Shown piece by piece: positions 25,852-34,018 of a stretch of DNA of 64,000 bases. Each line of letters begins with the position of its first letter. Positions within the stretch are counted from its first letter, which is position 1. Both the position numbers and the translations under genes were made by a program. The notes beneath the pieces were generated by a model. It had not been told where the DNA came from. It did not search any database and saw only the letters and a list, made by a program, of their open reading frames with translations. Source of the stretch: Phormidesmis priestleyi ULC007 (GTDB lineage: Bacteria; Cyanobacteriota; Cyanobacteriia; Leptolyngbyales; Leptolyngbyaceae). The stretch is from the NCBI RefSeq assembly GCF_001895925.1, contig NZ_MPPI01000004.1:62001-126000 (forward strand), in the 5' to 3' direction.

Positions 25852-25883
25852 TCTAATAACTAGCCTGACACTTTTTAACCGAT

Positions 25884-25911
25884 CGCCCAGACAAAAATGT
25901 CTGGGCGTTTT
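25884..25911 (+). terminator. intrinsic terminator after the bilin lyase
   Basis: CGCCCAGACA and TGTCTGGGCG form a perfect 10-bp stem with a 4-base A loop, followed by TTTT. It lies 32 bp past the stop. Confidence 0.9.
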
Positions 25912-26107
25912 GATGTCTAAATTTAGTCGATACCCCACTAGCCCGATCGCTTGTACTATGAATCACAGGCTTTAGATCAGGAGAAGTTTCATAGACTTTT
26001 CTCACGCTGTTGAGTAAGAACAAAATTACGCAAAAGACCCGTTAGAGAGTAAAGCCTATCAGGATTCCCTAACAATTTTAAGAAACTTAGGTTGCTCTAC
26101 AGAAAAC

Positions 26108-26270
26108 CTAAAAATGTTACAAAACTTTACAATATTCACTCTTTTCCCCAGCTATTCCACATTCATTCCACAGATGTTTAAAGCCTTTTCCCCAGCTTTT
26201 CCACACCCTTGTAAAAGTTATCCACAGGAGATCGGCTTCTGATCGGCTTGATCGGTTCACCTGTGGATAA
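26108..26270. other. candidate chromosomal replication origin (DnaA-box cluster)
   Basis: Five DnaA-box-like 9-mers lie within 118 bp: TATTCCACA (26153-26161), CATTCCACA (26164-26172), TTTTCCACA (26197-26205), perfect TTATCCACA (26218-26226), and its exact complement TGTGGATAA (26262-26270). The last two face each other across 35 bp. A 21-bp unit at 26141-26161 recurs at 26185-26205 with one change, 44 bp apart. Beside them, 26108-26140 is very AT-rich (ATGTTACAAAACTTTACAAT) and could be the unwinding element. The 745-bp gap has no gene. Neither dnaA nor dnaN is nearby, which is not unusual in cyanobacteria. A smaller DnaA-titrating or regulatory site is the alternative. Confidence 0.65.
26141..26205 (+). 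repeat. 21-bp direct repeat within the DnaA-box cluster
   Basis: Two copies, 26141-26161 and 26185-26205, differ at one of 21 positions (A versus T in the box). Each reads CTTTTCCCCAGCT followed by a TTCCACA-type box. The 44-bp period is close to four helical turns, so bound DnaA would sit on one face. Confidence 0.75.
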
Positions 26271-26596
26271 CTCGATCGCTCCTGTCAACTTCTGCGAAAA
26301 ATCGAGTTATTTATGAAGCTATGTAACAAAAAAGAGCCTGAAAGCCTGATTCCATCGTTGATAGTTTTTTACTCTTAACTGGTTCTTTAACTTCCTTAAC
26401 GTTGTAATTTTGAGGACGATCGCGCAAGATATAGCGACTGACCTGAAGCACTCAGACCTTCATCAAACTCACCCCCTACAAAAGATAGAACGGTAGGAGA
26501 GAGGCTTGAGAGGCGCAAGTTTCTGCTACGCAGATTTGTTCTTGAAGAGCAGGTTTTCCCATTCATTCCCGTCACTCATTCACAAAGAGGTTTGTC
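26271..26596. other. right part of the 745-bp non-coding gap
   Basis: AT-rich DNA between the DnaA-box cluster and the DUF2811 gene. It should contain the promoter of that gene. No repeat or gene was recognised. Confidence 0.35.
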
Positions 26597-26809
26597 ATGG
26601 ATAGCAACATCAGCATTTTGGTCGAAATTCCTGAATCTCTACACCAATCGTTTATGACATTCATTGAGGCGCGACCCGATTGGGATCAAGACCGTGTGTT
26701 TTCGGCAGCGCTCTCGTTGTTTTTGCTGCAAAACCGGACGACTAACGATCGTCAAACTGCCCGCATCTATCTTGACTCTCTTTTTAAGCGCACCGTCGAG
26801 CCAGTTTAG
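26597..26809 (+). CDS. DUF2811 family small protein
   Basis: A 70-residue protein matching the cyanobacterial DUF2811 pattern as I remember it: ISILVEIPESLHQS, then RPDWDQDRVFSAALSLFLLQN and RIYLDSLF. The N-terminal strand followed by helices resembles small ribbon-helix-helix-like folds, but DNA binding is only inferred. ATG 26597 has GAGG eight bases upstream. The next gene starts 45 bp later and is probably co-transcribed. Confidence 0.75.
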   Translation: MDSNISILVEIPESLHQSFMTFIEARPDWDQDRVFSAALSLFLLQNRTTNDRQTARIYLDSLFKRTVEPV

Positions 26810-33169: not shown

Positions 33170-34018
33170 ATGATCACACAAATTCGTGCCACATCTCCTC
33201 GCCCGTTTCTTAAATGGGTGGGTGGAAAAAATCAACTGATTCAACAATATCTCCCTCATTTTCCAGAGAGTTATCGTCGCTATTACGAGCCGTTTGTAGG
33301 GGGAGGGGCGATTTTTTTCCGCTTACAGCCTCAGCAATCTTTTCTCGCTGACATCAACATTGAGTTGGTCAATGTCTACCGATGTGTCAGAGAACAGGTC
33401 GAAGAATTAATCACGCTGCTAGAAAACCATCAAGCGCTGCACGGGCAAGAACATTTTTATGCAGTACGATCGCAGCCCACAACCTCTGATGACTGGTTCC
33501 TCGAAGGCAATAATTTAGAACGAGCCGCGCGGCTAATTTATCTCAACAAAACCTGCTTTAACGGTCTTTATCGAGAGAATTCTAAAGGACAGTTTAACGT
33601 GCCGATCGGCAGCTATCAAAAGCCAACAATTTGCGATTCAGATTTACTTCGAGTTGCGTCTTCGGCGCTGCAATCTGCTCAAATCGAACGGAGTTCTTTT
33701 GACGCGGTTTTAGACCATGCCAAAGGTTCTGAAGATTTTGTTTATTTCGATCCGCCTTACTATCCGATCAGTTCGACGAGCAAGTTTACGAACTATAGCC
33801 GCTACTCATTTAGCGAAGCCGATCAAATTCGCCTTAAAGAGGTGTTTGTTGAACTGAGCGATCGGGGCGTAAAGGTCATGCTTTCTAACTCTGATTGTCC
33901 CTTTATTCGAGAGCTTTTTAACGGGTTTAATATTCATACCATTAACGCGAATCGCAACATTAACTGCAACACTGAAAAACGAGGAAAGATTACGGAAGTG
34001 TTAGTGACTTCTTACTAA
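33170..34018 (+). CDS. dam: Dam-type DNA adenine-N6 methyltransferase
   Basis: A 282-residue D12-class methylase. Motif I region is FLKWVGGKNQ and FVGGGA (42-47). Motif IV is DPPY (194-197), followed by TSKFTNYSRYSF. LYLNKTCFNGLYREN-type text (IYLNKTCFNGLYREN, 123-137) and this motif IV context are those of GATC-specific Dam/DpnM enzymes. No restriction partner is adjacent, so it is a solitary methylase. GATC lies inside HIP1 (GCGATCGC), the most abundant octamer in this genome. Specificity is inferred from the family, not shown. It converges on the next gene with a 4-bp stop overlap. Confidence 0.9.
   Translation: MITQIRATSPRPFLKWVGGKNQLIQQYLPHFPESYRRYYEPFVGGGAIFFRLQPQQSFLADINIELVNVYRCVREQVEELITLLENHQALHGQEHFYAVRSQPTTSDDWFLEGNNLERAARLIYLNKTCFNGLYRENSKGQFNVPIGSYQKPTICDSDLLRVASSALQSAQIERSSFDAVLDHAKGSEDFVYFDPPYYPISSTSKFTNYSRYSFSEADQIRLKEVFVELSDRGVKVMLSNSDCPFIRELFNGFNIHTINANRNINCNTEKRGKITEVLVTSY

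What the first reader, a model, noticed from the sequence alone, without database searches (positions are those of the whole stretch)
26108..26270. Candidate chromosomal replication origin not beside dnaA or dnaN
Seen: five DnaA-box-like 9-mers in 118 bp, two perfect and facing each other (TTATCCACA at 26218, TGTGGATAA at 26262). A 21-bp unit repeats at a 44-bp period, with an AT-rich stretch beside it. All of this lies in a 745-bp gene-free gap. Known: boxes such as TTATCCACA and TTTTCCACA mark bacterial origins, and cyanobacterial origins are often away from dnaA. Inferred: this is oriC, or a DnaA-titration site.
Basis: partly seen in the sequence, partly recalled or inferred. Interest (0 to 1): 0.75.

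Follow-up and report, generated by a model that had tools for sequence, protein, structure and literature searches.

The report
DnaA-box cluster upstream of DUF2811
A cluster of binding sites for the DNA-replication starter protein DnaA, first read as a replication origin, is more likely an ancient cyanobacterial control region in front of a small gene of unknown function that tends to be lost when DnaA is lost.

Summary
In detail: six DnaA boxes (≤1 mismatch), three perfect, lie in 129 bp of a 745-bp gap, far beyond chance. The oriC reading does not hold well: in this genome dnaA and dnaN are adjacent, with ten boxes in the 480 bp between them. The array belongs to an element found across the photosynthetic cyanobacteria in front of a 70-aa DUF2811 gene: boxes upstream in 117 of 121 usable DUF2811 loci (4.44/kb versus 0.19/kb downstream); best model hit 177–562 bp upstream, same strand, in 97 of 101 genomes. 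In relatives it is tied to a promoter motif by fixed spacing: an RpaB-type HLR1 motif in 45 of 72 loci, with TTGACA exactly 92 bp on in 34 of 46. Two dnaA-less genomes that keep DUF2811 have lost the boxes but kept TTGACA; eight of ten near-complete dnaA-less genomes lack DUF2811, against 2 of 193 with dnaA. Best reading: a DnaA-bound, probably light/redox-tuned control region of DUF2811, perhaps also a DnaA sink. There are no binding or expression data, the window's own promoter match is weaker than in relatives, and no held paper mentions DUF2811.

The parts
25852..26596 (.). 745-bp intergenic gap between a CpeS-like lyase gene and DUF2811
26116..26133 (+). HLR1-like site (RpaB consensus KTTACAWW-NN-KTTACAWW), 0 mismatches, left of the array
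   Evidence: consensus read in PMC9241938 (passages); binding not tested
26142..26150 (+). DnaA-box-like TTTTCCCCA
   Evidence: conserved as TTTTCCCCA in relatives
26153..26161 (+). DnaA-box-like TATTCCACA
   Evidence: conserved as ATTCCACA
26164..26172 (+). DnaA-box-like CATTCCACA (2 mismatches), 11 bp after the previous one
26186..26194 (+). DnaA-box-like TTTTCCCCA (44 bp after the first)
26197..26205 (+). DnaA box TTTTCCACA, core box 1
26218..26226 (+). DnaA box TTATCCACA, core box 2 (21 bp after box 1)
26262..26270 (-). DnaA box TTATCCACA on the minus strand, core box 3 (44 bp after box 2, head-to-head)
26142..26302 (+). match to element model R1 built from 41 DUF2811-upstream elements (this sequence is one of the 41)
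   Evidence: 70 bits; E 4e-19 in the own genome
26310..26327 (-). HLR1-like site between array and gene, 2 mismatches; 113 bp from core box 1, the commonest distance in relatives
26402..26407 (+). TTGTAA, promoter -35-like hexamer 92 bp from the start of the HLR1-like site, where 34 of 46 loci have TTGACA
   Evidence: weaker than in relatives
26597..26809 (+). DUF2811 gene (PF10929, 70 aa), the constant companion of the array
   Evidence: E 2.4e-25

Best explanation
The array is a multi-site DnaA-binding control region for the DUF2811 gene. DnaA protomers would load on boxes phased by about 11 bp on one face of the helix (two direct core boxes 21 bp apart plus a head-to-head box 44 bp on, and further boxes upstream), next to an RpaB-type site, and set the output of a promoter at a fixed spacing downstream. 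DUF2811 output would thus follow the level or state of DnaA and, through RpaB, light or redox. Because DUF2811 tends to be lost with dnaA, its product probably works in the same process, most simply as a regulator of DnaA or of initiation that closes a feedback loop. Shown by sequence: the boxes, their geometry, their linkage to DUF2811, the fixed spacing to the promoter motif in relatives, and the loss of boxes and mostly of DUF2811 where dnaA is lost. Inferred: DnaA occupancy, RpaB occupancy, the effect on transcription and its sign, and the role of the protein. Sequestering DnaA may be a side effect of so many boxes.
For: Linkage: best R1 hit 177-562 bp (median 322) upstream of DUF2811, same strand, in 97 of 101 genomes for which both places were listed (the capped tables show 127 and 144 of 194 genomes). 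At least one box matching TTWTCCMCA in -750..-100 in 117 of 121 usable loci (5 of 126 were too short; some loci may be of one species); 349 boxes at 4.44/kb against 15 at 0.19/kb in equal stretches downstream. Geometry: same-strand spacings 21 (85), 44 (40), 65 (33), 22 (25), 43 (21), 54 (18), 11 (17), 33 (17); head-to-head partner (relaxed inverted box) at 43-46 bp in 80 of 121. Promoter tie: HLR1 on the minus strand, <=2 mismatches, between array and gene in 45 of 72 loci against 0 of 72 equal-length downstream controls, and 48 of 73 on either strand against about 2% of dinucleotide shuffles; TTGACA exactly 92 bp from the start of HLR1 in 34 of 46; in the 43 of 72 loci with TTGACA before a C-run, box 1 to TTGACA distances fall at 193-196, 203-206, 212, 215, 225, 234, a helical-turn series reached by 0 of 5000 random sets (loci are related, so not independent). 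DnaA dependence: three of three near-complete dnaA-less genomes of the class sample have no R1 match, against 168 of 180 with dnaA that have one (Fisher 4.5e-4). G054 and G374 lack dnaA but keep DUF2811: no box at <=1 mismatch remains in 700 bp upstream and no R1 match at E<=1, while the left-flank motif and a TTGACA remain; the four dnaA-positive genomes of the same family keep the array. DUF2811 is absent in 8 of 10 near-complete dnaA-less genomes and in 2 of 193 dnaA-positive ones (G399, G485, both fragmented). Moves as a unit: 7 of 9 plasmid DUF2811 loci read (of 13 records found) carry the array.
Against: No binding, expression or replication data. The window's own promoter is weak: TTGTAA instead of TTGACA at the expected place, and its nearest relatives L118-L121 lack TTGACA there too. 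HLR1 is not found at <=2 mismatches in 27 of 72 loci, nor at the usual place in the two f10 (S. elongatus-like) genomes (3-4 mismatches, left of the array). The left-flank HLR1 of the window is shared by only a few relatives (<=2 mismatches in 7 of 73, shuffles 1.8%). The array lies about 200 bp upstream of the -35, far for direct contact with polymerase. A second copy of the three-box core in the same genome (C30:409405-409478) stands by other genes with no HLR1 or promoter motif, which suits a stand-alone DnaA site. Twelve dnaA-positive genomes of the class sample (3 f50, 9 f19) have no R1 match. Two dnaA-less genomes keep DUF2811, so the protein is not strictly tied to DnaA, and the co-loss rests on at least two lineages (f13, f7 g17), not on independent events. 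In the two dnaA-less loci the HLR1 near TTGACA has 4 mismatches, which is chance level. 2 of 9 plasmid copies have no array. DUF2811 could not be given a fold (pLDDT 54; no PDB relative; no match to CopG).
Confidence: 0.62

Rival explanations
1. It is a datA/DARS/DBC-like site: its main job is to sequester DnaA or change its nucleotide state and so time initiation; DUF2811 is next to it for a secondary reason.
For: Three-box core with one box opposite and the same spacing in two copies of one genome; PMC5742627 (passages) describes the E. coli DARS core in those terms, and says box clusters in B. subtilis and S. coelicolor repress untimely initiation. The C30 copy has no DUF2811 beside it. The element lies away from dnaN in the complete genomes compared.
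Against: In relatives the array is tied to one gene, its promoter motif and an HLR1 site by fixed spacings and occurs with that gene on plasmids; a pure sink would not need this. E. coli control sites keep a constant relative distance from oriC (PMC4585315, abstract and passages); this one shows no constant distance from dnaN.
Confidence: 0.22
2. It is the chromosomal oriC, or one of several origins.
For: Box cluster beside an AT-rich stretch; 12 of 27 genomes checked, among them 8 of 8 of f18 g28, have no TTWTCCMCA within 1.5 kb upstream of the dnaN domain, so their origin is elsewhere; PMC4674748 (section 12) says the predicted T. elongatus oriC is bordered by genes of unknown function; PMC5987646 (passages) puts the N. 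punctiforme oriC away from dnaA and dnaN; some cyanobacteria replicate from several origins (PMC7198777 abstract).
Against: The dnaA-dnaN gap of this genome holds ten boxes at <=1 mismatch. The nine other element-bearing genomes have 4-12 TTWTCCMCA boxes upstream of dnaN. In G401 the element is 0.85 Mb from dnaN; sampled skew fits an origin near dnaN (0.0062-0.0069) better than at the element (<=0.0013), though 8 of 100 permutations reach the best fit. S. elongatus oriC lies near dnaN (PMC7198777 passages). Three f18 genomes without boxes at dnaN (G089, G179, G477) list a second R1 match far from the first. Skew in G241 and G308 is uninformative.
Confidence: 0.1
3. The 9-mers are sites of some other protein, not DnaA.
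For: No binding data exist for this locus.
Against: TTTTCCACA is the box bound by DnaA domain IV in Cyanothece (PMC4674748 abstract and section 12), and the boxes are missing where dnaA is missing.
Confidence: 0.03

Closest known systems
DnaA-regulated promoters (for example the DnaA-bound intergenic regions of B. subtilis, Ishikawa et al. 2007, seen only as cited in PMC7198777)
   Same: DnaA boxes outside oriC, upstream of a gene, proposed to control its transcription
   Different: Here several phased boxes with a fixed spacing to an RpaB-type site and a promoter motif in most relatives, kept across a class of bacteria; the gene tends to be lost with dnaA
E. coli DARS1/DARS2 core
   Same: Three DnaA boxes, one in the opposite orientation, equal spacing in both copies of the genome
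   Different: Spacings 21/44 bp in a larger phased array; IHF or Fis sites not looked for; tied to a promoter motif; no evidence of nucleotide exchange
E. coli datA and B. subtilis / Streptomyces DnaA-box clusters
   Same: Non-origin DnaA-box cluster in an intergenic region
   Different: Linked to one gene with fixed spacing; no constant position relative to dnaN
Cyanobacterial oriC upstream of dnaN
   Same: TTTTCCACA boxes, often at 11- and 21-bp spacing, AT-rich flank
   Different: There the boxes form two facing groups beside dnaN; this element has mostly one orientation plus an inverted box and lies beside DUF2811
RpaB (HLR1) promoters
   Same: HLR1 motif near the promoter in most loci
   Different: HLR1 starts 92 bp upstream of the -35-like TTGACA and is combined with a DnaA-box array

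Membership tests
oriC | Cluster of DnaA boxes beside an AT-rich stretch | tested here: met
oriC | Is the densest box cluster, or lies beside dnaA/dnaN | tested here: not met
   Ten boxes between dnaA and dnaN on C103; the window cluster is on C48
oriC | Lies at the GC-skew minimum | tested here: inconclusive
   Own genome is 118 contigs; G241 and G308 show no skew pattern; G401 favours dnaN weakly
oriC | Replication starts there in vivo | not testable with these tools
   needs marker-frequency sequencing
DARS/datA-like site | Non-coding DnaA-box cluster outside oriC with fixed box spacing | tested here: met
DARS/datA-like site | Constant position relative to oriC | tested here: not met
   Taking dnaN as the mark, distances in eight complete f18 g28 genomes range from about 0.3 to 1.3 Mb of 2.5-2.8 Mb; but boxes are missing at dnaN there, so the true origin is not known
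DARS/datA-like site | Changes the nucleotide state of DnaA or initiation timing | not testable with these tools
   biochemistry needed
DARS/datA-like site | IHF/Fis binding site in the element | not tested
   no scan for these sites was made
DnaA-regulated promoter | DnaA boxes at conserved position upstream of one orthologous gene | tested here: met
   97 of 101 genomes; 117 of 121 loci
DnaA-regulated promoter | Fixed or helically phased spacing between boxes and promoter | tested here: met
   in relatives; weaker in the window itself
DnaA-regulated promoter | Boxes lost when DnaA is lost | tested here: met
   few lineages
DnaA-regulated promoter | Transcription of DUF2811 depends on DnaA | not testable with these tools
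   reporter or RNA-seq needed
RpaB regulon | HLR1 motif near the promoter | tested here: met
   45 of 72 loci against 0 of 72 controls; window: 0 mismatches left, 2 mismatches right
RpaB regulon | RpaB binds there | not testable with these tools
   EMSA or ChIP needed
Ribbon-helix-helix proteins (for DUF2811) | Sequence or fold match | tested here: inconclusive
   hhalign to CopG probability 0.2 with Neff 1.7; AF2 pLDDT 54 with helices 13-24, 31-45, 52-64

The most novel reading that the evidence does not exclude
DUF2811 is an unrecognised cyanobacterial partner or regulator of DnaA, and this element is the switch of a class-wide feedback loop in which DnaA occupancy and light/redox (RpaB) jointly set its level, coupling replication initiation to photosynthesis; this would also explain why many cyanobacteria keep dnaA although some can replicate without it.
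Probability: 0.25. Interest if true: 0.85.

Novelty: new variant of a known kind. Interest (0 to 1): 0.62.

Why it matters
[quoted passage not shown] This element gives a concrete, testable target for DnaA outside oriC, found in most of the photosynthetic cyanobacteria sampled, and a small gene that tends to disappear with dnaA. If the HLR1 sites are real it also offers a direct link between light signalling and the replication machinery. It warns that a clean DnaA-box cluster in a cyanobacterium need not be an origin, which matters for automatic oriC calls in genomes where dnaN has no boxes.

Tried and rejected
GC skew: sampled at 40 x 20 kb in G241 and G308; no significant two-arm pattern (285 of 300 and 54 of 300 permutations reach the observed fit). 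In G401 the best fit is near dnaN but 8 of 100 permutations reach it.

Exact-geometry pattern search (box-12-box-35-inverted box, <=2 mismatches): 10 of 386 genomes of the phylum sample, reversed-pattern control 1 genome. It showed the element exists elsewhere but missed most copies, because the third box is often AAATCCCCA-like or shifted by one base; the model R1 replaced it.

R1 also matches dnaN-type origins at lower score (L007 25 bits, L033 38 bits), so '179 of 194 genomes' is not a count of DUF2811-linked elements; one search is. In f50 and f19 R1 matches are weak or missing (missing in 3 of 6 and 9 of 20); of seven DUF2811 loci read there, four (2 of 2 f50, 2 of 5 f19) have two head-to-head perfect boxes 44-46 bp apart, and only one of the genomes without an R1 match (G393) was looked at.

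DUF2811 as a ribbon-helix-helix protein: the sequence pattern suggested it to me (recalled), but there is no profile match to CopG, no PDB relative, a poor AF2 model; left open. No fold search was run, the model being of low confidence. Rfam: one sub-threshold human lncRNA hit, taken as chance. No nucleotide match to the array region in plasmids, no DUF2811 in phages, none in NCBIfam.

Loci set aside: one search dropped 5 of 126 as too short; the four without a box are L142 (a 3-mismatch geometry hit lies at -1641), L194 (degenerate boxes) and the two dnaA-less L293 and L296. One search used the 72 of 80 named loci with a good anchor; add the window (73). G442 and G453 (62% and 83% complete) have no dnaA match but keep R1 and DUF2811 matches; they are counted in the Fisher table but not among the 'near-complete'.

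Gene names hemJ, ispE, DUF3082, guaA and cation efflux for neighbouring loci come from my reading of the translations, not from a search.

Full report
What is there. The window is cyanobacterial (G000:C48:62001-126000 of a 5.68-Mb draft in 118 contigs); the nearest named relative by the neighbouring protein, among the records searched, is Phormidesmis priestleyi BC1401 (97% over 70 aa). The 745-bp gap 25852-26596 lies between a CpeS-like lyase gene and a DUF2811 gene (PF10929, E 2.4e-25), followed by a PD-(D/E)XK nuclease gene. In it lie six DnaA boxes at <=1 mismatch in 129 bp, three perfect; 500 shuffles of the gap never gave more than two in 130 bp.

Why it is probably not the origin. dnaA and dnaN of this genome are neighbours on contig C103 and the 480 bp between them hold ten boxes at <=1 mismatch, four perfect. 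The nine other genomes in which the window's geometry was first found have 4-12 TTWTCCMCA boxes upstream of dnaN as well. In a 2,696,255-bp genome (G401, S. elongatus-like) the equivalent, poorer element is at 774 kb and dnaN, with eight boxes upstream, at 1620 kb; sampled skew prefers an origin near dnaN, weakly. S. elongatus oriC lies near dnaN according to PMC7198777 (passages). Against this, 12 of the 27 genomes checked have no box upstream of dnaN and a thirteenth (G463) only two scattered ones; among the twelve are all eight f18 g28 genomes. The origin has therefore moved away from dnaN in some lineages and I cannot say where it is in those; three of them (G089, G179, G477) list a second R1 match far from the first.

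What it is linked to. A search for the exact three-box geometry found it in 10 of 386 genomes, twice in this genome. Of the nine loci from other genomes, seven show a DUF2811 reading frame beside the array (L009, L011, L012, L014-L017, by eye), L010 has one too, and L013 only a possible divergent one. A scan of named genomes with the DUF2811 protein gave 80 loci; 75 have at least one TTWTCCMCA box within 1.5 kb upstream, in most about 230-700 bp upstream and in the gene's orientation; three of the other five hold less than 400 bp of upstream sequence. Counting 121 usable DUF2811 loci, 117 have at least one box upstream; density 4.44/kb against 0.19/kb downstream. The alignment of 41 elements reads TTTTCCCCA-nAn-ATTCCACA-nnn-TTTCCACA ... 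GTTTTCCACAG-nTTnnnnAAnG-TTTTCCACAGG ... TTGGGGATTTT, with most box letters invariant or nearly so and the spacers free. With a model of it (R1) the best hit is upstream of DUF2811 on the same strand in 97 of 101 genomes where both are listed. In families f50 and f19 the element is poorer: R1 is missing in 3 of 6 and 9 of 20, though four of seven loci read still have two head-to-head boxes 44-46 bp apart.

How it is built. Box spacings are near-multiples of 10.5-11 bp (11, 21/22, 33, 43/44, 54, 65), so bound DnaA would sit on one face. Between the array and the gene lies, in 45 of 72 loci, a match (<=2 mismatches) to HLR1, the RpaB site whose consensus I checked in PMC9241938 (passages); none of 72 equal stretches downstream has one. 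TTGACA follows exactly 92 bp from the start of HLR1 in 34 of 46 loci, and the distance from core box 1 to this promoter motif jumps in helical turns (193-196, 203-206, 212, 215, 225, 234; 43 loci). The window itself has a perfect HLR1 left of the array (26116), a two-mismatch one right of it (26310) at the usual 113 bp, and TTGTAA, not TTGACA, at +92 (26402). So the frame is there but its promoter element is weaker in this genome and its nearest relatives.

Dependence on DnaA. In the class sample of 194 genomes dnaA is not found in five, two of which are incomplete (62% and 83%; both keep R1 and DUF2811 matches); the other three have no R1 match. Of fourteen genomes from the three families involved, ten lack dnaA; eight of those lack DUF2811 too, while all four dnaA-positive ones have it. 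Over all genomes examined for both, DUF2811 is present in 191 of 193 with dnaA and 4 of 12 without (Fisher 3e-10, not corrected for kinship). The two near-complete dnaA-less genomes that keep DUF2811 (G054, G374) have no box at <=1 mismatch in 700 bp upstream, yet the left-flank motif (0 and 2 mismatches) and a TTGACA remain, and their four dnaA-positive family members keep the array. This is the strongest sign that the boxes are kept for DnaA and that the rest of the region is the promoter of DUF2811.

Moving as a unit. DUF2811 occurs on 13 plasmid records. Of nine loci read, seven carry the array and two do not; four of six checked have TTGACA 92 bp from the best HLR1-like site, which there has three mismatches. 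In the own genome a second core copy with identical 21/44 spacing lies on C30 between a hemJ-like gene and DUF3082-ispE (my reading), without HLR1 or promoter motif. In G005 the order is ispE-DUF3082-array-DUF2811 (my reading), so the own genome may hold the two sides of a split locus, each with an array; this is inference.

Mechanism proposed. DnaA fills the array; with RpaB at HLR1 it raises or lowers DUF2811 transcription; DUF2811 feeds back on replication. Binding, sign and the last step are inferred. The array can also withdraw DnaA from oriC, as suggested for box clusters of B. subtilis and, at first, for datA (PMC5295017, passages). Its three-box core resembles the description of DARS cores in PMC5742627 (passages), but a constant distance from the origin, reported for E. 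coli control sites (PMC4585315, abstract and passages), is not seen when dnaN is taken as the mark.

Novelty. DUF2811 appears in no paper of the held library. Searches for cyanobacterial DnaA with datA/DARS, oriC and dnaN, GC skew, Synechocystis with DnaA box and regulation, ChIP-seq, Thermosynechococcus oriC and RpaB with DnaA gave no account of this element in the listings and passages I saw; of the five papers, in two RpaB is only in a cited title, in one it is unrelated, and two were seen as listings only. Subscription journals are mostly not held, and the RpaB regulon paper was not available, so an earlier report cannot be excluded. DnaA-controlled genes and non-origin DnaA clusters are known kinds; the widely conserved, spacing-locked DnaA/HLR1/DUF2811 unit is a new variant. 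DUF2811 and R1 were searched only within the class, so nothing is claimed for the other classes of the phylum.

Noticed in passing
L004 5402-5510 (G000:C30:409405-409478): Second copy of the three-box core with the same 21/44 spacing, between a hemJ-like gene and DUF3082-ispE, without HLR1 or promoter motif; another perfect box 260 bp away.
   Followed up: partly
L008 4973-5022 (G000:C105:11972-12021): Three perfect direct DnaA boxes 20 and 21 bp apart between the ends of a cation-efflux-type gene and a guaA-type gene (names from my reading of the translations).
   Followed up: no
L293 (G374) and L296 (G054): Two near-complete genomes of family f12 without a detectable dnaA that keep DUF2811 but no boxes; with f13 and f7 g17 this suggests several separate dnaA losses.
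   Followed up: partly
L262, L263, L265, L267-L270, L272: Eight of eight f18 g28 (small genomes, 2.5-2.8 Mb) have no TTWTCCMCA within 1.5 kb upstream of the dnaN domain; their origin must be sought elsewhere.
   Followed up: no
L342-L345, L347-L349: Large cyanobacterial plasmids (187-485 kb) carry DUF2811 together with the DnaA-box array.
   Followed up: partly
L030 and L031, upstream of dnaN: In the f17 genomes G241 and G085 the dnaN-side boxes are TTATCCACA rather than TTTTCCACA, matching the box type of their DUF2811 element: the two sites share a drift in box sequence.
   Followed up: no
window 33170-34018: A D12-class adenine DNA methyltransferase gene (PF02086).
   Followed up: no
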